Source of the DNA: Pseudomonadota bacterium
GTDB taxonomy: Bacteria; Bdellovibrionota; Bdellovibrionia; Bdellovibrionales; JACTMU01
Length of the DNA stretch: 64,000 nucleotides
Direction of reading: 5' to 3'
Assembly: GCA_014584465.1 (NCBI GenBank)
Contig: JACTMU010000088.1
Coordinates: 1-64,000 of the forward strand
Shown here: positions 11,225 to 47,325 of the stretch, piece after piece
Position numbering within the stretch: position 1 is the first letter of the stretch
Layout of the letters: each line of letters begins with the position of its first letter
The notes under the pieces: generated by a model
Seen by the model: the letters and a program-made list of their open reading frames with translations, nothing else
Told to the model about the DNA's origin: nothing
Databases searched by the model: none
Translations under genes and position numbers: made by a program

Positions 11225-14200
11225 TTACTTGATCTTTTCAATCGCAAAATAAGTCTTGTTCGATCCAAAGTCTAAGTTTTTGGCCGCTCCGTTGGAATGA
11301 AGAACATACATTTCAACGTAGTCGTTCGCGCTCAATTGCACAAGATCACTCATTGAAGTGTTCGACGACGCTGTTGATGCCGTATTGTTGACTCCGGACG
11401 AATGGATAGCTCCGTTGACATAAATTGCAACCTCCAAGCCGTCTCCTACTGCTGGGGCGAGTATTCTAGCTGCCGCTGAAACCCTATAGATTCCTGCTTG
11501 TGTCGCTGTATAACGATAGTTCGTTGTGGAATCAAACTCAGACTTTAAATCGAAAGTCTCAGCATTGAGTTGCACCTTTGTGTAGGTCAAACTCGGTATG
11601 CTTTGAGTCGATGTATTTCGATAAGCTCTTGCCGCCGTGGGACCCGAACAGATCCAACGACCGTTGGTGTTGTCCCAAGACATTGTTTCACCTTCGGCGC
11701 AAGCCACCGCATTGGGTTTGTACTGAAAGTATCCTCCAGCTGCATCCATCGTCAAATCACCCCACAAGGTCATCCCGTTGCCATTGAGGAGCATTCTTGG
11801 AGTGTTCGTACCTCCAGCATAGTGAGAAAAAGCAATCTCAGACTCAGTGTCCACGGTCGTCCATTGAGTGGCAATGACACCCACATCACCCTGGATCGTT
11901 CCGGAACTGTTCTCCAACATGAACTCAATCTTGCCGCCAAGTCCAGATACACCATTCCCATCACTCTTGGTGTGGACCACCTGAAGAATTGTCTGCCATC
12001 CAGCATTGGTGTCATCGCTGGTCATGCGCGCAACTGTGCTTGCCGAAGACCCTGGCGCATTTCCGCTGACATCAAGCCGCGCAGAAACGGGCGCCGCAAC
12101 ACCTAAACCAATGGTTCCCGTATCAGTAACACGAAAGGTCTCGGAACCGTTGTCTTGAATCAAAAAATCATTGGTCGAGGTAAGATTGAAAGTGACGTCA
12201 GTTGTGTCAACCGTCACCGAAGATCCACCATCATAGGCTGTATCCATCGAAGTTGCAGGTGCGTTGCTCGTACAACTTACCGTACTTCCATCACTTGTAC
12301 ACCACTTTGTGGCTGTCAATGTTCCCACTTTAGGATCCGACTCTGTGGTCACTGGTGCGTTGCTCGTACAACTCACCGTACTTCCATCACTTGTACACCA
12401 CTTTGTGGCTGTCAATGTTCCCACTTTAGGATCCGACTCTGAAGTCACAGGTGCGTTGCTTGTACAATTCACACTCGTTCCATCAGTGGTACACCACTTT
12501 GTGGCTGTCAATGTGCCTACCTGAGGATCACTCTCAGTGGCAGGTGTTGAACAGATCCATCGGCTGTTGGTGTTGTCCCATGAAAGAAGGTCGGCATCAC
12601 TACATGCAGCATTGTTGGGTTTGTAGCCCATGTAAAGACCTACTCCGTTGAGCAGTTCTGAAAAATCGACACCGTCTTTCACCGATGCCGTCACTGTTGG
12701 ATCTGACTCTGAAGTCACAGGTGCATTGGTCGCACAATTCACCGCACTTCCGTCACTTGTACACCACTTCGATGCGGTCAATGTTCCCACTTTAGGATCC
12801 GACTCTGTGGTCACCGGCGCATTGCTTGTACAGTTCACACTCGTTCCATCAGTTGTACACCACTTCGATGCCGTCAATGTCCCGACCTGAGGATCGGACT
12901 CGACACCTGAAGCCGAGGCGCAAACCCATCGGCCATTGATGGAGTCCCATGAGAGAAGTTGTCCCTCGGAGCAAGCCGCATTGTTGGGTTTGTAAGCCAG
13001 ATAGAGGCCTACGCCGTTGAGAAGTTCCGAGACGTCAACACCATCCTTAACGGAAGCGGTTACGGTCGGATCTGATTCCGAAGTTACTGGAGCATTGGTC
13101 GTACAGTTCACGCTGGTTCCATCTGTTGTACACCACTTTGAGGCCGTCAACGTTCCGACCTGCGGGTCCGATTCTGATGTCAAATATCCTGCTGAAGCGT
13201 GATTCCCCCAACCCGACACTGTATTGAGTGTCGTCTTATCCGCTGCGCTCATAAAACCATCAGCTCCAGTTGTGGCTGCCGTATGGGAATGTCCACTGTC
13301 GGACTTATTGTAGAAGTAATCATATTCACTTCGGTTGATCAAACCACCCGTGACACCAACTCCGCTGGCCATAGGAATATTGAGCGTGTGTGCGTTACCA
13401 GCAGAACTCCATGCTGGAGCAGTGCCGGACGATCCAACCGCAAGAGTTTGAGTCGATCCCGTCTGACCGCCTAGAGAAGTTATCCCACCACCACCGCCAC
13501 TACCGGTGTTGTCTGCTCCAGGCACCCATTTCCCGCTTTGGTATTTCAAGACCTGCCCATCACTTGGTGTTGCAGAGATCTCAACATCTGACATGTCATT
13601 AAGTTCATAATCATTTGCTTGTGGCACTACAACCCCAGTTCGTCCATTGAAACTTGTAACACCTCCTGCATTTTGAACTCGCTCCCAGCCATTGGTTCCA
13701 AAGATGATCCAATCACCCGACAACCACGTAGTCGTTCCATCAACGGATGTGCTCCCTGCATTGGACACAACATAGAAATCACCAGGTGAAGGAACTTCGT
13801 CTGCCAGATAGGAACTTCCATCTCGAAGTGCAGGCAAATTCGAAGAGGCGTCCCAACTTCCAAGATAAGTCAATCCATCAAAATCCGTAGCCACCCATTT
13901 CTTTAGATTTGCATTGTACCTCATGATTTGTCCGTGACCGGCACCCATTTGAGGAAGCTCAATGGTCACCTGAGTAGGACTCGTTGTCGCATTGGCCGAA
14001 CCTACAAGAAAGTTGTAGGTCTCCCCAACAACTAAGGAGACAGCATCAACCAGAGTAGCTCTTAACTCTACTGGAGTTTGGACTTGAATTTGAAATCTTG
14101 CATCAGAACCTTGAATCTTCACCTCTTTCACATGTTCGAGATTTTTTCCACTAAATGTGAGATTGACACCATCAAAGGAAATACCTTCGACGACAGGTTC

Positions 14201-14332
14201 CGGATATTTGATTTCATTTTGAATAGAACAAGAGGTCAACGTTAGTATTGGAGACATCATCAGGATGAGTCCAAAGATTTCCCCCGTCCACTCTATGGGT
14301 ATTCGTGAAGTTCTTTCTCTCGATACGTTCAT
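11225..14332 (-). CDS. Tail-fibre-like repeat surface lipoprotein with C1q-like C-terminus
   Basis: This 1035-residue protein is probably a cell-surface adhesin. The N-terminus is a long signal with the lipobox LTSC (cysteine about 35). An IPT/TIG-like beta domain follows (about 43-130), then short tail-fibre-style segments (for example GAGHGQIMRYN and VTSFNGRTGVV). About residues 385-690 hold six copies of a roughly 32-residue module beginning ESDPxVGTLT and containing W-C-T-x-D-G-x(3)-V-x-C, interleaved with YKPN-AC-W-RWxC modules. A last YKPN module leads to a C-terminal beta-jellyroll (about 905-1035) that looks like C1q/TNF. The cysteine pairs could form small disulfide loops. GGGAGAG precedes the ATG, with a good promoter about 150 bases upstream. 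The ligand is unknown. Confidence 0.85.
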   Translation of the reverse strand: MNVSRERTSRIPIEWTGEIFGLILMMSPILTLTSCSIQNEIKYPEPVVEGISFDGVNLTFSGKNLEHVKEVKIQGSDARFQIQVQTPVELRATLVDAVSLVVGETYNFLVGSANATTSPTQVTIELPQMGAGHGQIMRYNANLKKWVATDFDGLTYLGSWDASSNLPALRDGSSYLADEVPSPGDFYVVSNAGSTSVDGTTTWLSGDWIIFGTNGWERVQNAGGVTSFNGRTGVVVPQANDYELNDMSDVEISATPSDGQVLKYQSGKWVPGADNTGSGGGGGITSLGGQTGSTQTLAVGSSGTAPAWSSAGNAHTLNIPMASGVGVTGGLINRSEYDYFYNKSDSGHSHTAATTGADGFMSAADKTTLNTVSGWGNHASAGYLTSESDPQVGTLTASKWCTTDGTSVNCTTNAPVTSESDPTVTASVKDGVDVSELLNGVGLYLAYKPNNAACSEGQLLSWDSINGRWVCASASGVESDPQVGTLTASKWCTTDGTSVNCTSNAPVTTESDPKVGTLTASKWCTSDGSAVNCATNAPVTSESDPTVTASVKDGVDFSELLNGVGLYMGYKPNNAACSDADLLSWDNTNSRWICSTPATESDPQVGTLTATKWCTTDGTSVNCTSNAPVTSESDPKVGTLTATKWCTSDGSTVSCTSNAPVTTESDPKVGTLTATKWCTSDGSTVSCTSNAPATSMDTAYDGGSSVTVDTTDVTFNLTSTNDFLIQDNGSETFRVTDTGTIGLGVAAPVSARLDVSGNAPGSSASTVARMTSDDTNAGWQTILQVVHTKSDGNGVSGLGGKIEFMLENSSGTIQGDVGVIATQWTTVDTESEIAFSHYAGGTNTPRMLLNGNGMTLWGDLTMDAAGGYFQYKPNAVACAEGETMSWDNTNGRWICSGPTAARAYRNTSTQSIPSLTYTKVQLNAETFDLKSEFDSTTNYRYTATQAGIYRVSAAARILAPAVGDGLEVAIYVNGAIHSSGVNNTASTASSNTSMSDLVQLSANDYVEMYVLHSNGAAKNLDFGSNKTYFAIEKIK
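12252..13180 (-). repeat. Tandem ~96-bp repeats inside the surface lipoprotein gene
   Basis: Copies of a 96-base unit encode the ESDPxVGTL module. The two copies at roughly 12253-12348 and 12349-12444 are nearly identical at DNA level. The third (to about 12540) is more diverged, and further copies near 12700-12900 and 13090-13180 are separated by longer YKPN modules. Near-identity of neighbouring copies suggests recent duplication and the potential for copy-number change by slippage or recombination. Confidence 0.85.
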
Positions 14333-39870: not shown

Positions 39871-40113
39871 TAGGTCATCTTTTCAAGCCCAGATTCGGGT
39901 TCAAACTTGGCTCTGTGGTGTCAATATGGCCATGTCCTTCCACCCAAAATGCAACCTGCTCCCCTTTCAATGCGAAGCCATGGCAATCTGCGCGGCATGA
40001 CTCTTGCTCCCCTGTGGGCCAGTGGTGGATTTTTGTCTTGCCCTTTTGGACCCATGCTTGAGGGGGTTTTACGTGGCGCGGCAGATTTCACATTTCAAAA
40101 GATAGGGGGGACT

Positions 40114-43100
40114 ATGAAGGCTTTGATCGCATTGTGTTTTCTCTTTTCGGGAGCCACCAGTCTCGTCTATGAGACATTGTGGATTCGCATGCTTTCGTTG
40201 GGTGTGGGTTCTACCGCCACTTCCATGAGCCTCGTCCTTTCGATCTTCTTCTTTGGCCTTGGTCTTGGCAGCTATTTCGCAGGACGATTTCATCACCGAA
40301 TCAAAAACCCTCTCCTGTTCTACGGACTTATCGAAGGCGGCATTGGTCTCTATGGCCTGCTTGTCTATTTTCCACTTTTTGATTTTCATCTTGTTCTTAC
40401 CTTCTTACCACTGAGCGGAACATTTTCAGTTTTAGGAATTGCTGCAAAATTTTTGCTCGTTTCCCTCTTTTTGCTTCTTCCAACGGTCGCAATGGGAGCC
40501 ACCCTACCCATTTTGGTCAAGATTCTCTCAAACAAAGAGAGCTCTGCGGGGAAGACCGTCAGCCTCCTTTATAGCCTCAATACCTTTGGTGGAGTTTTGG
40601 GGACACTTCTCACAAGCTTTCTTCTGATTCCCTACCTTGGCGTGCTTAAAACCAACTATGCAACTGTGATCACAAATCTTCTCATTTTTGGCGTGGCAAC
40701 CTTAATCGCCACTCGAAAGAGTTATGCGCTCAAAAACTTCTCAGACAAAGAAGATTTAGAACCCGAGTTACAAACTCGCCGAGCTTCTTCATTGAGTGTG
40801 CGCTCGTTTCATCCAAAACATCTGACCACTGAGGCTCTTCTCCTGGTGGCCTGTGGCGTCTGCGGCTTTAGCTCCATTGCGGTCGAAGTTGTATGGACAA
40901 AGTATCTAGGCATATTTCTTGGTACAAACATCTACGGTTTGGGTTTGGTACTTGCACTATTCTTATCAGGGATTGCCATCGGTTCTCTGCTTCTCTCTTT
41001 CTTTATCGAAAAGATCCAGAACAAAGAGCGCCTTTTTCTTCTTCTTTTGGGCTTGGCGGTGGTTGCCACACTTGCCTCAAGCTTTCTGCTGAACTGGATC
41101 CCATTGGGAGCTTCGATCATTAGCTATTATGTTGGCAAATCCATCAGTCTTCTTCTTGTGAAATCGATTCTCACAGGGATCTTGTTGTTGCTTCCCACCG
41201 TTCTGTTTGGCTCCCTACTGCCGCTTGGAATAACGCTTCTTAGTGAAAAACGTAAGGATGTGACCGCCACCACGGGTGTGGCTTACTCAATCAATACCTT
41301 TGGATCCATTCTGGGCTCCTTTCTCTCCGGGTTGATCCTGATCCCTTGGCTAGGTTCTAACCTTACCGTTAAGATTGGAGCCATGACCCTCCTCATGCTG
41401 CTGGTTCTTTTGACGCTAAGACTTGAACCCAATAGACGCATTCGACTTGGAAGTTATGCGGCCTCAATTCTTCTTTTTGGCATCATTTGGGGCGTCGGAA
41501 CGATTGATTTTAAAAATGTCATCAAGTCGGCCTATTATCAAACGACGAGCCAAGATCTCTCACTTTCTCAAGTAACCCAATATTATGCGAAGGACTATGA
41601 AGAGTTTCTTCAAATCTATGAAGGAAAGAGTGCCATCATAAGCTTAAGTCACGATCCGGGTGATGGACAAAACTATAAAGATTACTTTCGACTCAAAACA
41701 AATGGCCTTAATGAATCGATTCACTATCGTGTGTCCAGCGGAACCCTACCCAAATATGAGGCTCTTTTGGGTCTACTTCCTTTTGTCAGTCAGAAAACAC
41801 CCACCTCGGCTTTTGTCGTCGGGTTTGGCGGTGGCTACACCGTGGATTTTCTTACTTCAATGCAGATCGATCGAGTCTATGTTGCGGAACTTGAAGAGGG
41901 CATCCTCGACGCTGCACAGTATGTCTATCACGGCCAGAATCCCACTCTCAAAAGACCCAACCTCTCGCTTGAAATCGAAGATGCACGCTACGTTCTTGCA
42001 GGAAAACTGCATGGACCCTATGACATCGTAGTCTCTCAGCCCTCTCACTCTTGGTTATCGGGTGTGGCAAATCTTTTTACTCGAGATTTCTTTGAAATTG
42101 TAAAGGAAAACCTCACCGAAGCTGGAGTTTTCTCTCAGTGGCTCAACCTTTACAATATGGATCAAACCATTCTCAAGAGTATATTAAAGACATTCTTTTC
42201 TGTTTTCCCTCACGGCGCCGTCTTTACGGATTACAAAGATGAAGAGCTCATCATGATTGGAAGTCTTCAACCAATTGAGTTTCAAATCGATAAGATCGAA
42301 AAACTCACTCAAGATCCCGAAATGAAAAGACGTCTTTCAGAAATACCCCTCAATTCGGTTCATGATCTTTTTGCCAACTTCGCGCTCAGTCGCACCGAGG
42401 TGGAAGCTCTTACCACAGGCGCTCCTCTCAATACAGATGAAAATGCGTTTGCTGAAGTTCGTCAGAGTCGGCTCTTCTATACAAAGTCCGATCCATCTCA
42501 AAAGCCCCAATCCTTCTTCGGAGAAAACTACAGTGGTGGTTTTGATCAAATTCTTTCAGATCAGCCCTCAATTGATTTCTACTATGAAACTTTAATCTCC
42601 TTAGTCAATAAGGAGAGATACTACAAGTTCTACAGATTGTTAAAGAAATATGAGTCACTCACTCAAGATCGTCCAGAATACGCAAAAGATCTTGGCTACC
42701 TCTGCTATAGGTCACAGCGACTTGATTGCAGCTACAAAAACTACCTTCGCGCCATGTCCACAGATCCCTCCTCGGAAACTCTTGTCTCTCTCATTGGGGC
42801 CACGTTGTCCATTCGCCCCCCTCATGAGGCGTTAGCTCTTATTGAACAATATAGAAACCACACCTCTAAGGCACTTCAGTGTTATGAAGTGGTCGCACAT
42901 GTTAAAAATGGAAGCGTTGAACACTCGACAAATCTTGTCTCAAAGATCATTGCCAATAAAGACCAATATCTTCAAGAGTGCGGCAACTATTTGAACCGTT
43001 CTCTAGGTTTTTACTATTTTGAAAAGGCCAACTTTGATTTGGCTCGCAATTATCTTGAAGCTTACTATCGAGAAGTTCCTTCCGACATAGAAACCGTCGA

Positions 43101-43281
43101 AAGACTGATCTCTCTCTTTTCTGCAAAAGGCGATCGCAAGAATCTCTCTCGATTTCTCGACTATTATCAAAAGATATTGGATTCAAAGAGACAAAACGCC
43201 AAGGATCTTGCCGATTACTATCTTTCTCTGGGGTTAAGTGAGGATGCGATTGCACTGCAGACACACGCAGACACTCAATAG
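40114..43281 (+). CDS. Membrane-fused spermidine-synthase-like protein with C-terminal helical repeats
   Basis: This 1055-residue protein has three parts. About residues 1-510 form many transmembrane helices in two related halves (SLVYETLWIRML and later SSIAVEVVWTKYLG mark their starts). About 510-770 is a spermidine-synthase-like Rossmann domain with FVVGFGGGYT, VYVAELEEG, EIEDARYVL and SQPSHSWLSGVANLFT. The remainder is helical and TPR-like. The fused MFS/spermidine-synthase family is common in deltaproteobacteria, but its substrate is not established. The usual GGGDG motif is altered, so aminopropyl transfer is not assured. AGGGGGG precedes the ATG at 40114; a longer frame from 39907 has no ribosome site. 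Confidence 0.82.
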   Translation: MKALIALCFLFSGATSLVYETLWIRMLSLGVGSTATSMSLVLSIFFFGLGLGSYFAGRFHHRIKNPLLFYGLIEGGIGLYGLLVYFPLFDFHLVLTFLPLSGTFSVLGIAAKFLLVSLFLLLPTVAMGATLPILVKILSNKESSAGKTVSLLYSLNTFGGVLGTLLTSFLLIPYLGVLKTNYATVITNLLIFGVATLIATRKSYALKNFSDKEDLEPELQTRRASSLSVRSFHPKHLTTEALLLVACGVCGFSSIAVEVVWTKYLGIFLGTNIYGLGLVLALFLSGIAIGSLLLSFFIEKIQNKERLFLLLLGLAVVATLASSFLLNWIPLGASIISYYVGKSISLLLVKSILTGILLLLPTVLFGSLLPLGITLLSEKRKDVTATTGVAYSINTFGSILGSFLSGLILIPWLGSNLTVKIGAMTLLMLLVLLTLRLEPNRRIRLGSYAASILLFGIIWGVGTIDFKNVIKSAYYQTTSQDLSLSQVTQYYAKDYEEFLQIYEGKSAIISLSHDPGDGQNYKDYFRLKTNGLNESIHYRVSSGTLPKYEALLGLLPFVSQKTPTSAFVVGFGGGYTVDFLTSMQIDRVYVAELEEGILDAAQYVYHGQNPTLKRPNLSLEIEDARYVLAGKLHGPYDIVVSQPSHSWLSGVANLFTRDFFEIVKENLTEAGVFSQWLNLYNMDQTILKSILKTFFSVFPHGAVFTDYKDEELIMIGSLQPIEFQIDKIEKLTQDPEMKRRLSEIPLNSVHDLFANFALSRTEVEALTTGAPLNTDENAFAEVRQSRLFYTKSDPSQKPQSFFGENYSGGFDQILSDQPSIDFYYETLISLVNKERYYKFYRLLKKYESLTQDRPEYAKDLGYLCYRSQRLDCSYKNYLRAMSTDPSSETLVSLIGATLSIRPPHEALALIEQYRNHTSKALQCYEVVAHVKNGSVEHSTNLVSKIIANKDQYLQECGNYLNRSLGFYYFEKANFDLARNYLEAYYREVPSDIETVERLISLFSAKGDRKNLSRFLDYYQKILDSKRQNAKDLADYYLSLGLSEDAIALQTHADTQ

Positions 43282-43350: not shown

Positions 43351-44667
43351 CTAAGGACATGAACGTATGATATTGGTCGAACAGTGCAGCCCACCCTTTA
43401 AGGCGTGCAGATGAGAGATATCAAAGAATTTCGGTTCTAGTCCTAGATCAGAAATGACCGTCTCAATCTCATGGCGAAACGGTTCAAATGGCTGATCTGG
43501 AAGAAAGAAAAATCTTTCAAGAGAGATCCCATTGACTGCATTTGGATTCATGGGAATCGTACGATCTTCGGGAGTTCCATAGGTTTGAGAGATTTTTCTC
43601 GGTGAGAAGAGAAGTGGAATCGGTTTTTTCTGAACGAGCGTACAGCCCTGATTGGTTGTGAGCTCACGCTCGAGACGCTTCAAATCATGATCAATGAGGT
43701 TCTGATAAACCATGTTGGCCTCAATCAAAGCTCTGCACTTAGGTGATCCAGATTTCAAGTGAGTCCAATCAATCTGGTGAAGACACTCTCGAAAATCCTC
43801 CCGGTCATCCTCGTTTTGCTCATAGATCATTTGAAGGACCCCGATCGCCTCTCCTTTTCGAGGCGTGGTCTTTGCGAAAAGTTCAAAGGCTCGCTGAGGC
43901 GAGGCGTAAAGCATCGCCATTTCACACTTTGAAGATGAGAGGTAGGTGGGCACAGTCGTGAAGAGTTCATCCACATGACCAGGATCTAGCCATGAAGTGT
44001 TCACCGTTACAATCTTTTGATTCAACCGTTTGCTCAACTGCTCCCGAAAAACGGGGTTCATGTTGTCTCCAACTGCCACGACGGTGGTTGAAAGAGCCTC
44101 AATGTTCCCACCAAAGTCGCCGTTATCACCGAGTCTTCCCATTTTAAAATAGTGGGGTTTTGAAATAAAATCAGCAAAGGTGTAAAGTGCTGTCGACAGG
44201 GCTACCTGATTGCCATGACGATCATACGGAATCTCAAAGATTTGCAGTTGCCTTTCAGGAAGCTTGATCCCCGACTCAAAGTAGTCTTGCATCCATCCTA
44301 CATCCTCTGAAGCTGCCGGTAAAAATTTAATCTTTTTAAGACCCATGCCACGAGCGAACTGTTGAAATCGTGTGTACGCAAGGTCCAAAGAAGAGGGTGA
44401 CACAAACATCACAACTTCTGGCTTGGAGCTAAGGATTTGTGAAGTGAGCAAAATCTCTTTGATGATCTTGCTTTGCAATGGATGATCAAAAGAACCTAAA
44501 ACAAGATATTGTGGAGGATAGATGGACGGCAAAACATAGGTCCCCCTCCCAGAGGGACATTCAACCTGTGCAGGAAGCGAAGTCTGATGAATTCGCGTTG
44601 CGCAGGCCGCCAACAGAGAGCCCGCCCAAAGCCCTAGCCAAGAGAACCAACGCACCACCAGACCCAA
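43351..44667 (-). CDS. Lipoprotein with protein-arginine deiminase (PAD) catalytic domain
   Basis: This protein is predicted to convert peptidyl-arginine to citrulline outside the cytoplasm. The N-terminus is a lipoprotein signal with lipobox LAAC (C22). The rest shows four PAD active-site blocks in order: GWMQDYFESG (D128), GDFGGNIEAL (184-191), PGHVDELFTTVP (H231, D233), and KGGLHCSTNIIR (C429). They match the human PAD4 pattern of D350, H471, D473 and C645. The spacing (about 100 and 200 residues) also fits. It is 438 residues with no visible calcium-domain repeats. The TTG start has GGAG four or five bases upstream. It follows a secreted-protein gene, probably in one operon. An agmatine-deiminase relative is the main alternative. 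Confidence 0.82.
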   Translation of the reverse strand: MGLVVRWFSWLGLWAGSLLAACATRIHQTSLPAQVECPSGRGTYVLPSIYPPQYLVLGSFDHPLQSKIIKEILLTSQILSSKPEVVMFVSPSSLDLAYTRFQQFARGMGLKKIKFLPAASEDVGWMQDYFESGIKLPERQLQIFEIPYDRHGNQVALSTALYTFADFISKPHYFKMGRLGDNGDFGGNIEALSTTVVAVGDNMNPVFREQLSKRLNQKIVTVNTSWLDPGHVDELFTTVPTYLSSSKCEMAMLYASPQRAFELFAKTTPRKGEAIGVLQMIYEQNEDDREDFRECLHQIDWTHLKSGSPKCRALIEANMVYQNLIDHDLKRLERELTTNQGCTLVQKKPIPLLFSPRKISQTYGTPEDRTIPMNPNAVNGISLERFFFLPDQPFEPFRHEIETVISDLGLEPKFFDISHLHALKGGLHCSTNIIRSCP

Positions 44668-44737: not shown

Positions 44738-45304
44738 TCAATAGAGAGCGTTGATGGGTCCGGGAAGTGGAACGGGGCTCCCATTGCCAGCCCAACCAAA
44801 TCGATCCAAAAGCGCCATATCAAACCAGCGATGTCGATGACCATCCCGAGAGTCATACCAACGAAGCTCTGCCAATTGAAGGGCACCCGACTTCTGAAGT
44901 TCCTGTTCCCTACCATTTACAACCTCGCCAACGAGGTCCACAGAGGGGGGCCATGACTCTACATAAATCGCGACAATCCCCACAACATAGCAATTGAGGT
45001 TGGATTCAAAATCTTCACGCCTCTGGGTTGACCTAGAGACATGGCCAAACCAATACTCCTCATCAAAACCATCCTTCGTGATCACCCCTACATTCTCAGG
45101 AAAGACACTCTCAAGAGCAAGGTCCCAATAGGCACTGAACACCTCTTGATCAAACTGATCATGCTCGACCCACTCCCGATGTTCGAAGAGATCGGAGGAA
45201 GTTGGGCATTTGCCAGCCTCGGGCAGTTGAAAGGACAAAGCTTGACCCACAGCCGTTGAAGCCCCCACGAGTACCGTCAACCCCCAAAAAAGAGTCCATC
45301 TCAT
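44738..45304 (-). CDS. Secreted protein of unknown function, upstream of the PAD lipoprotein
   Basis: This is a 188-residue protein with a signal peptide (hydrophobic core LFWGLTVLVGASTAVG, cleaved near GQA). The mature part has two cysteines (GKCPTSS and LNCYVVG) and an arginine-rich C-terminal region (RWYDSRDGHRHRW). The ATG at 45304 has AGGGGGGG six bases upstream; a start nine codons earlier is weaker. It lies 70 bases before the PAD gene on the same strand. Whether it is a partner or substrate of the deiminase is speculation. Family unknown. Confidence 0.65.
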   Translation of the reverse strand: MRWTLFWGLTVLVGASTAVGQALSFQLPEAGKCPTSSDLFEHREWVEHDQFDQEVFSAYWDLALESVFPENVGVITKDGFDEEYWFGHVSRSTQRREDFESNLNCYVVGIVAIYVESWPPSVDLVGEVVNGREQELQKSGALQLAELRWYDSRDGHRHRWFDMALLDRFGWAGNGSPVPLPGPINALY

Positions 45305-45335
45305 AAAACACCCCCCCTCTTTCGTTTTCATTTAA

Positions 45336-45605: not shown

Positions 45606-46826
45606 ATGGGAAAATTTCTTCAATTTCTTTCAGCCCGATTTTCAAACAGCGTAGTCAACCATGTCATTTGGTTTGTCTTTGCGTTTGTCACAACCTCATG
45701 TTTGGTCATCTCAGGATTTGTCTACATTGCAGAACGGACCGACGCCACTTCCAATATTAAGAGCTATAGCGACTCCCTTTGGTGGGGAATCGTAACACTG
45801 TTGACTGTTGGCTATGAGGATCGCTATCCCGTGACCCCTCTTGGACGTCTCTTTGCAATACTCTTAATGGTGGCTGGGGTCGCATCCGTTGGAATTCTGA
45901 CGGCCAAGATTTCATCTCATTTCTTAGAAAAGGCTCTTAACGACCGGAGGGGATTCGTGAACGAACAACTCTTAACGCATCACTTAATTGTCTGCGGCTG
46001 GAAATCAAATATGTATGAATTTCTAGTTCAGATTCTAGAAAGCAATCTGGACCTTAAAGCTGAAGAGATCGTGCTCGTCAACAATGCTCCCGATGAGATG
46101 CTCTCTTCTCTTCTTGACTACCCTCTTCTAAAACATCTGAAAATTGTAAAGGGTGACTTTTTTCAAAAAGAGGCCTTAGAGAGAGCAGCACCCCAGCGCG
46201 CTCGTAAGATCTTGATCTTAGCAGACAAGACCCCAGATGCCACAGGAAAGATCTCCTCGATCACTGAGGCCGACGCACGGACCGTCATGACTGCCATGAC
46301 TCTTGCCACGATTGCACGAGGTGTGCCCGTAGTTGCGGAAATTCTTGACGCAACCATGGACCAATATCTCAAATTGGCTCATGTCAATGACATTGTCTAC
46401 ACTCGGGACTACAGCCAACTCCTCATGGCGAAGGCCTCAAATGGAACGGGCATTCCCAACATAGTGAGGAGCCTCCTTGATCCCCACGGAACTCATTGCC
46501 TCACAACCCACGAAATTCCTCACACTTGTTTCAATCAAAGTTTTGAACACGCTAAGGAAATCATCCGCCAAGAACAACCGGATTTCACGCTTATAGGCAT
46601 ACTTGAAAACTCCGGGAACATTCATTCCGTCAAGGAGCTTGCTCTGCGACGCGCCCAGCAAACACCCGACGTCGGTCAACTCGTAGAAAATCTCCATGCG
46701 ATCAAAAATATGAGATTCAATGAGCCTATCTTTTCTCCGCCTGATGACTACATTTTAAAAGAGGGATCCCTCGCGATCGTCATCTGCACAAAATCACAAG
46801 GGAAGAGTCATGTCCGCGCTGCTTAA
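45606..46826 (+). CDS. Two-helix potassium channel with RCK domain and altered filter
   Basis: This is an MthK-like potassium channel. Residues about 19-41 and 80-105 are membrane helices. Between them, the pore loop reads TLLTVGYED, with E71 where the second filter glycine of TVGYGD would be. Residues 125 onward form an RCK/TrkA-N Rossmann domain beginning HHLIVCGWKSN, like MthK. A second regulatory subdomain follows. Its end overlaps the next gene by 17 bases. The ribosome site is weak. The altered filter may change selectivity; potassium transport is inferred from family only. Confidence 0.82.
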   Translation: MGKFLQFLSARFSNSVVNHVIWFVFAFVTTSCLVISGFVYIAERTDATSNIKSYSDSLWWGIVTLLTVGYEDRYPVTPLGRLFAILLMVAGVASVGILTAKISSHFLEKALNDRRGFVNEQLLTHHLIVCGWKSNMYEFLVQILESNLDLKAEEIVLVNNAPDEMLSSLLDYPLLKHLKIVKGDFFQKEALERAAPQRARKILILADKTPDATGKISSITEADARTVMTAMTLATIARGVPVVAEILDATMDQYLKLAHVNDIVYTRDYSQLLMAKASNGTGIPNIVRSLLDPHGTHCLTTHEIPHTCFNQSFEHAKEIIRQEQPDFTLIGILENSGNIHSVKELALRRAQQTPDVGQLVENLHAIKNMRFNEPIFSPPDDYILKEGSLAIVICTKSQGKSHVRAA

Positions 46827-47325
46827 GTCTGATCACGTCACAGATTACATGAGTATGCTTCAAGGAGTCGCCCTGTTTTCTGGAATTCAAGACAATGAGA
46901 TGGCTCTTCAGGAGTTGGCCCTGAAGATGTCTCTAATTTCCTACCAAACTGGAGATTACATTTGCCGCGAGGGTGAGTTGGGAGATGCCTTCTACATACT
47001 TGTCGAAGGCTCCATCAGTATTTTTAAGCAGACTCCTGATGGTGACCTTTTTAAGGTTGCAGCCGTAAAGGGCAAAGATCTTCCTGGCATCGGCGAAGGT
47101 GGCCTGATCGGAAGTGAAGCCAGATCTGCCACGATCCAATGTGATTCTCCCTGCACTTGCGTTTTGCTCTCTCGAGAAAAATTCGAAGAGTACATTCAAA
47201 AATTTCCTTCCTGGGGCCTGTCTATTTACAAGAACATTGCCCGAGCCTTGATCAAACGACTCTCCAAAATGAATACCGATCTCATGCTCCTGCACAAAGC
47301 TCTTACCCGAGAGGTCCGGGGCTGA
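46810..47325 (+). CDS. Cyclic-nucleotide-binding domain protein coupled to the channel gene
   Basis: This 171-residue cytosolic protein is a single cNMP-binding domain. Key blocks are YICREGELGDAFYILVEGSI (about 55-75), a phosphate-binding-cassette-like region IGEGGLIGSEARSATIQC (about 94-112, with the R of EARSA), and a C-terminal helix. No DNA-binding domain is present, so it is not a CRP-type regulator. The 17-base overlap with the channel gene suggests a stoichiometric partner, as if a cyclic-nucleotide-gated channel were split into two chains. Ligand identity (cAMP, cGMP, cyclic di-nucleotide) is not determined. Confidence 0.85.
   Translation: MSALLKSDHVTDYMSMLQGVALFSGIQDNEMALQELALKMSLISYQTGDYICREGELGDAFYILVEGSISIFKQTPDGDLFKVAAVKGKDLPGIGEGGLIGSEARSATIQCDSPCTCVLLSREKFEEYIQKFPSWGLSIYKNIARALIKRLSKMNTDLMLLHKALTREVRG

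What the first reader, a model, noticed from the sequence alone, without database searches (positions are those of the whole stretch)
43351..44667. Lipid-anchored protein with a complete protein-arginine deiminase active site
The protein carries all four PAD catalytic blocks in the right order and spacing (D128, H231 and D233, C429 plus the GDFGGN block), matching the human PAD4 pattern, preceded by a clear lipoprotein signal. Eukaryotic-type PAD domains are unusual in bacteria, and a lipid-anchored one on the surface or periplasmic side would allow citrullination of envelope or prey proteins. It has no obvious calcium-binding domain, so regulation may differ from animal PADs. An upstream secreted protein may be a partner or substrate.
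Basis: partly seen in the sequence, partly recalled or inferred. Interest (0 to 1): 0.72.

Follow-up and report, generated by a model that had tools for sequence, protein, structure and literature searches.

The report
Membrane-anchored single-domain bacterial arginine deiminase
This gene, from a relative of predatory Bdellovibrio-type bacteria, encodes a lipid-anchored enzyme built like the catalytic core of the human enzymes that turn protein arginine into citrulline; it belongs to an exported, stripped-down branch of that family that I could not find described in the papers available to me.

Summary
Window 43351-44667, on the MINUS strand, encodes a 438-aa protein with a lipobox (LLAA|C22) and a PAD domain: Pfam PF03068 at 66 bits (cut-off 25), no agmatine-deiminase or PAD_M match, AF2 model (pLDDT 85, pTM 0.86) whose best PDB matches are all human/mouse PADs. 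W125, D128, N188, H231, D233 and C429 are all present. The 'eukaryotic-type' label is misleading: human PADI2 groups with multi-domain bacterial PADs, while this protein lies in a separate clade of single-domain, exported PADs. The window's own subclade (13 sequences) is nearly all membrane-tethered by a lipobox or an N-terminal TM segment. Bdellovibrionota members share cysteines (C37, C248, C295, C342, C437); C248 and C342 are absent from multi-domain PADs and come and go together, which suggests a disulfide. PAD_M is missing, but Ca1-site ligands (Q127, E131, E190) persist. PF03068 is 16% frequent in this phylum, against 1/299 in Pseudomonadota. The upstream 'partner' is an orphan with no support. 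The published scheme recognises only three-domain and two-domain PADs; this is a third architecture. Peptidyl-arginine activity and physiological substrate remain untested.

The parts
43351..44667 (-). CDS of the membrane-tethered single-domain PAD (438 aa, TTG start; GTG at codons 4/5 also possible)
44602..44667 (-). Signal peptide and lipobox (LAAC), lipidated cysteine C22 at 44602-44604; +2 residue Ala
   Evidence: sequence
44275..44295 (-). W125-MQD128YFE131: guanidinium-binding Asp D128, Ca1-type ligands Q127 and E131 (PAD4 W347, D350, Q349, E353)
44218..44220 (-). R150, aligned with PAD4 R374 (substrate backbone contact)
44098..44121 (-). GDFGGNIE block (183-190), Ca1-type ligand E190 (PAD4 E411)
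43966..43977 (-). H231-V-D233-E234 catalytic block (PAD4 H471, D473)
43381..43407 (-). H421...H428-C429: nucleophile C429 (PAD4 C645)
44557..44559 (-). C37, start of the catalytic domain; presumed partner of C437
   Evidence: C37-type and C437 jointly missing in L010
43357..43359 (-). C437, C-terminal cysteine presumed paired with C37
43924..43926 (-). C248, presumed disulfide with C342
   Evidence: both present 52, neither 48, one only 2
43642..43644 (-). C342, presumed disulfide with C248
43783..43785 (-). C295; in the window clade always accompanied by C311 (43735-43737)

Best explanation
The gene encodes an exported, lipid-anchored, single-domain member of the PAD (PF03068) superfamily that hydrolyses the guanidinium group of arginine, most likely arginine in peptides or proteins, to citrulline plus ammonia on the periplasmic or outer-membrane side of a Bdellovibrionota bacterium. 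D128 and D233 hold the guanidinium, H231 acts as acid/base, C429 attacks to form a thiouronium intermediate that water resolves. Disulfides (C248-C342, probably C37-C437 and C295-C311) and a retained Ca1-type site stabilise the catalytic domain in place of the missing PAD_M domain, so the multi-site calcium switch of animal PADs is not expected. Shown here: ORF, lipobox, family, active-site residues, fold, single-domain architecture, clade and cysteine covariation. Inferred: catalysis, peptidyl substrate, disulfides, membrane side, biological target.
For: PF03068 66.3 bits, only Pfam match. Profile of relatives hits human PAD4 at 2.8e-25 and, below E=0.5, nothing in the PDB but PADs. AF2 pLDDT 85.1/pTM 0.86; the 50 best Foldseek PDB matches are all animal PADs, PAD4 2.9e-22. 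Active-site columns W/D/N/H/D/C intact in 95 of 102 family rows (some of the 7 exceptions only because the row is gapped or is a half-length control). Nearly all single-domain members carry an N-terminal export or membrane segment; the window subclade has lipoboxes or TM anchors. C248/C342 come and go together. Tree separates the single-domain clades from the multi-domain clade with human PADI2 (SH-aLRT 98).
Against: No activity data. R374-type arginine (R150) is not constant in its own subclade (7 of 13), so peptide recognition may differ. Identity to characterised PADs is only about 18-20%. Disulfide distances could not be measured (no coordinates given). One lipoprotein relative (L019) has lost H, D and C, so the clade tolerates non-catalytic members.
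Confidence: 0.62

Rival explanations
1. It is a periplasmic deiminase of small guanidino compounds (free L-arginine, agmatine or short peptide/C-terminal arginine, like PPAD), used for nitrogen/ammonia scavenging or acid buffering rather than for modifying proteins.
For: Single exported pentein domain, as in P. gingivalis PPAD; loss of PAD_M removes part of the animal enzyme's regulation; R150 (PAD4 R374) variable in the subclade.
Against: No Pfam match to agmatine deiminase or PPAD-type families at E<=1; closest solved structures by sequence and fold are all PADs; R150 itself is present in the window protein and in 22 of 22 Riflebacteria-type rows.
Confidence: 0.22
2. It is a PAD-fold protein without catalytic function (structural or binding role, as in PAD6).
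For: A lipid-anchored relative, L019, has lost H231, D233 and C429 equivalents, and PAD6 is an inactive animal PAD.
Against: All catalytic residues are intact in the window protein and in nearly all relatives at 20-35% identity, which implies selection for catalysis.
Confidence: 0.06
3. It is a calcium-dependent PAD differing from animal PADs only by loss of accessory domains, citrullinating prey or host proteins during predation.
For: Ca1 ligands kept; PF03068 is frequent in both classically predatory phyla, 60/369 and 54/195, against 1/299 and 3/247 elsewhere.
Against: PAD_M and most Ca sites absent; Myxococcota carry a different, multi-domain type; only 1 of 17 genomes of one large genus of the order has a PAD; Riflebacteria and Cloacimonadota, not known as predators, also have single-domain PADs.
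Confidence: 0.1

Closest known systems
Animal PADs (PADI1-4) and cyanobacterial three-domain PADs (PMC8826395)
   Same: PAD_C catalytic domain, D/H/D/C active site, WxQD and GN.E blocks, Ca1-type ligands, predicted fold
   Different: No PAD_N or PAD_M, exported and lipid-anchored, extra conserved cysteines, separate clade, ~18-20% identity
Two-domain bacterial/fungal PADs (Actinobacteria, Myxococcota, Paenibacillus, fungi)
   Same: Same Pfam family and active site; several Myxococcota members also look like lipoproteins (e.g. L097, L093, L094)
   Different: Those have ~150-250 extra N-terminal residues (PAD_M matched in L103 and L105), score 200-440 bits on PF03068, and lack C248/C342/C437
Porphyromonas gingivalis PPAD (agmatine-deiminase-type)
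   Same: Exported single catalytic pentein domain; works outside the cell
   Different: Different pentein branch, phyletically distinct from PADs (PMC8826395); T9SS-secreted, C-terminal arginine preference; no match here by sequence
Riflebacteria/Cloacimonadota/Oligoflexia single-domain PADs (e.g. L053, L054, L058-L060, L073, L080, L083, L092, L106)
   Same: Single-domain, exported, intact active site
   Different: Separate clade; no C437, and C248/C342 only in some members

Membership tests
PAD catalytic domain family (PF03068) | Profile score above the curated cut-off | tested here: met
   66.3 bits vs 25
PAD catalytic domain family (PF03068) | Catalytic Asp/His/Asp/Cys and GN block | tested here: met
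   D128, N188, H231, D233, C429 on matching columns
PAD catalytic domain family (PF03068) | PAD fold (alpha/beta propeller) | tested here: met
   AF2 pTM 0.86, Foldseek PAD4 2.9e-22
PAD catalytic domain family (PF03068) | Peptidyl-arginine deiminase activity | not testable with these tools
   needs enzyme assay
[quoted passage not shown]
   no match at E<=1; only about 20 residues between C22 and the first strand of the catalytic domain
Two-domain bacterial/fungal PADI | PAD_M-like domain before PAD_C | tested here: not met
   124 residues before WxQD in the window protein vs median 308 in the multi-domain clade
Two-domain bacterial/fungal PADI | Falls in the multi-domain clade | tested here: not met
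   separate clade, SH-aLRT 98-99 (quick tree)
Agmatine deiminase / PPAD | Better score to these families than to PAD | tested here: not met
   no such Pfam match at E<=1; none in PDB search at E<=1
Bacterial lipoproteins | Lipobox [LVI][ASTVI][GAS]C after a hydrophobic signal | tested here: met
   LAAC22; no dedicated predictor was available
Bacterial lipoproteins | Actual lipidation | not testable with these tools
   needs Lsp/globomycin or mass-spectrometry test

The most novel reading that the evidence does not exclude
A third class of PAD: single-domain, disulfide-locked, membrane-tethered or secreted enzymes that citrullinate proteins outside the cytoplasm without the animal-type calcium switch, concentrated in Bdellovibrionota and a few other phyla, and missing from the published two-type scheme of PAD evolution.
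Probability: 0.4. Interest if true: 0.75.

Novelty: new variant of a known kind. Interest (0 to 1): 0.56.

Why it matters
PADs are studied mainly as calcium-switched animal enzymes behind NETosis and rheumatoid arthritis, and the reference evolutionary study (PMC8826395) recognises only three-domain and two-domain types. A widespread single-domain exported type would show the minimal citrullinating unit, offer a calcium-switch-free enzyme for biotechnology, and make the question 'what is bacterial protein citrullination for?' testable in culturable relatives. The frequency of PADs in Bdellovibrionota (16%) and Myxococcota (28%), against about 0-1% in two other phyla, is a lead towards extracellular or predatory lifestyles.

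Tried and rejected
Upstream 197-aa secreted protein as partner: no Pfam/NCBIfam family, no homologue in 60 relatives, none near 80 other PAD genes. Conserved gene neighbourhood: none shared by the window and any PAD locus. Phage/virus origin: no relative in IMG/VR. NCBIfam: no model. PAD_M in the short N-terminus: rejected (AF2). Promoter/terminator scan: nothing decisive. Predation link: enrichment in two predatory phyla, but different PAD types and patchy distribution, so left as a lead. Direct measurement of active-site and disulfide distances was impossible because the tools give no coordinates. Literature searches for Bdellovibrio/lipoprotein/single-domain PADs found nothing relevant.

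Full report
What was checked. The finding's coordinates hold an uninterrupted 438-codon ORF, but on the minus strand (44667 to 43351, TTG start with a nearby GGAG; GTG at codons 4 and 5 are possible alternatives). The N-terminus MGLVVRWFSWLGLWAGSLLAAC is a lipoprotein signal with lipobox LAAC; C22 would be lipidated and Ala at +2 is compatible with outer-membrane sorting by the E. coli rule (general knowledge).

Family. Pfam gives one match, PF03068 (PAD), 66.3 bits against a cut-off of 25, over residues 198-437; nothing for agmatine deiminase, PPAD-like families or PAD_M at E<=1. NCBIfam has no model. phmmer against the PDB finds only PADs (PADI2 1e-6), and a profile of 19 relatives finds PAD4 at 2.8e-25 and, apart from one chance match at E 0.63, only PADs. 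hhalign against multi-domain bacterial PADs gives 99.9%, 2e-34, starting just before the WxQD block, so the N-terminal catalytic Asp is matched as well as the C-terminal half. AlphaFold2 with those relatives gives pLDDT 85.1, pTM 0.86, and the 50 best Foldseek PDB matches are all human or mouse PADs. The low-confidence loop 175-179 falls between R150 and the GGN block; by alignment this corresponds to the PAD4 region that orders on calcium binding (general knowledge).

Active site. Over 102 aligned family members, W125, D128, N188, H231, D233 and C429 are all intact in 95; of the seven exceptions, some are gapped or half-length rows (including the PADI2 control) and others differ only at the Trp or Asn column. 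The clear exception is L019, a lipoprotein of the same subclade that reads WDNMNS, a natural pseudoenzyme. R150 aligns with PAD4 R374. Ligands of calcium site 1 that lie within the catalytic domain (PAD4 Q349, E353, E411; general knowledge, consistent with the PAD2 Q350A and E354A calcium-site mutants among the Foldseek hits) correspond to Q127, E131 and E190 and are largely kept; PAD_M and hence most other calcium sites are missing.

Relatives and architecture. PF03068 occurs in 22 of 99 genomes of the order and is over the cut-off in 60 of 369 genomes of the phylum, against 1 of 299 Pseudomonadota (the seed genome itself), 3 of 247 Actinomycetota (seed included) and 54 of 195 Myxococcota. 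Fisher p is 4e-17 and 3e-12 against Pseudomonadota and Actinomycetota with seeds excluded; relatedness of genomes means these p-values are only a guide. A published survey gave 0.76% of bacterial species and 0.43% of Proteobacteria (PMC8826395), with a different search. Named relatives come from Bdellovibrionia, Bacteriovoracaceae, Halobacteriovoraceae, Oligoflexia, Riflebacteria, Cloacimonadota, Myxococcota, Actinomycetota and others. The length before the WxQD block splits the family: 94-189 residues (signal or anchor included) in the single-domain groups, median 308 in the multi-domain group. PAD_M is detected in multi-domain L103 and L105.

Tree. In a quick ML tree of 102 sequences the multi-domain PADs, including the C-terminal half of human PADI2, form one group (SH-aLRT 98). 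Single-domain PADs form a Riflebacteria/Cloacimonadota/Oligoflexia group (99) and Bdellovibrionota groups, of which the window's subclade has 13 members (99). So the protein is not 'eukaryotic-type'; the human enzyme belongs to the other branch. The midpoint root cannot say which form is ancestral, and end branches are long. The published scheme states two types, three-domain and two-domain, with two-domain PADs in all other bacteria; the main text of that paper contains neither Bdellovibrio, lipoprotein nor single domain.

Export and disulfides. Almost every single-domain member begins with a hydrophobic export segment. In the window subclade, by eye, seven look like lipoproteins (window, L019, L031, L044, L045, L048, L049), five have an N-terminal TM anchor after a basic tail (L042, L043, L046, L047, L050) and one is unclear (L041); the 24-member sister clade mostly has plain signal peptides. 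C248 and C342 are present in 44 of 44 Bdellovibrionota-type sequences and in 0 of 36 multi-domain ones; over all 102 rows both are present in 52, both absent in 48, only one in 2. C437 is present in 42 of 44; L010 has lost both it and the C37-type cysteine. This is the pattern expected of disulfides in an oxidising compartment, though shared ancestry inflates the counts and no distances could be measured.

Context. The gene lies 70 bases downstream of a 197-aa secreted protein on the same strand, convergent with a 1124-aa MFS/spermidine-synthase-like protein. The 197-aa protein has no homologue in 60 relatives and no neighbour of the window gene recurs at other PAD loci, so there is no support for a partner or operon-level function.

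Mechanism and verdict. Most likely a membrane-tethered, single-domain PAD acting on peptidyl-arginine outside the cytoplasm, stabilised by disulfides and perhaps one calcium, without the animal calcium switch. Catalysis, substrate and membrane side are inferences; activity on small guanidines or C-terminal arginine is the main rival. Membership in the PAD catalytic-domain family is met; membership in the three-domain and two-domain classes was tested and not met. Novelty: new variant of a known kind.

Noticed in passing
L019:1381-2889 (-), genome G071: Lipoprotein PAD relative that has lost catalytic His, Asp and Cys (WDNMNS), an apparent natural pseudoenzyme in the window's subclade.
   Followed up: partly
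G375 / G159 (Oligoflexia bacterium nN3bin31; L065, L072, L092, L106): One genome bin with about six PAD-family genes; those read are single-domain.
   Followed up: partly
L017 (G022:C26): Two adjacent PAD genes in tandem.
   Followed up: no
phylum of G370 (Myxococcota): 54 of 195 genomes carry a PAD, nearly all multi-domain; several sampled ones look like lipoproteins (L093, L094, L097).
   Followed up: partly
L085 (Nitrosovibrio MAG) and L070 (Proteobacteria MAG): Single-domain PADs nested in the Bdellovibrionota clade though labelled Pseudomonadota: transfer or mis-binned contigs.
   Followed up: no
window 39907-43281 (+): Large fusion: MFS-like membrane part, spermidine-synthase-like domain and TPR tail.
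   Followed up: no
window 45606-47325 (+): K+ channel with RCK domain overlapping by 17 bases a separate cyclic-nucleotide-binding protein, a possible two-gene gated channel.
   Followed up: no
window 11225-14332 (-): 1035-aa lipoprotein-like protein with repeated blocks (ESDPQVGTLTASKWCTTDGTSVNCTSNAP), resembling fibre-type repeats.
   Followed up: no
window 44738-45331 (-): 197-aa secreted orphan protein with no detectable relatives.
   Followed up: yes
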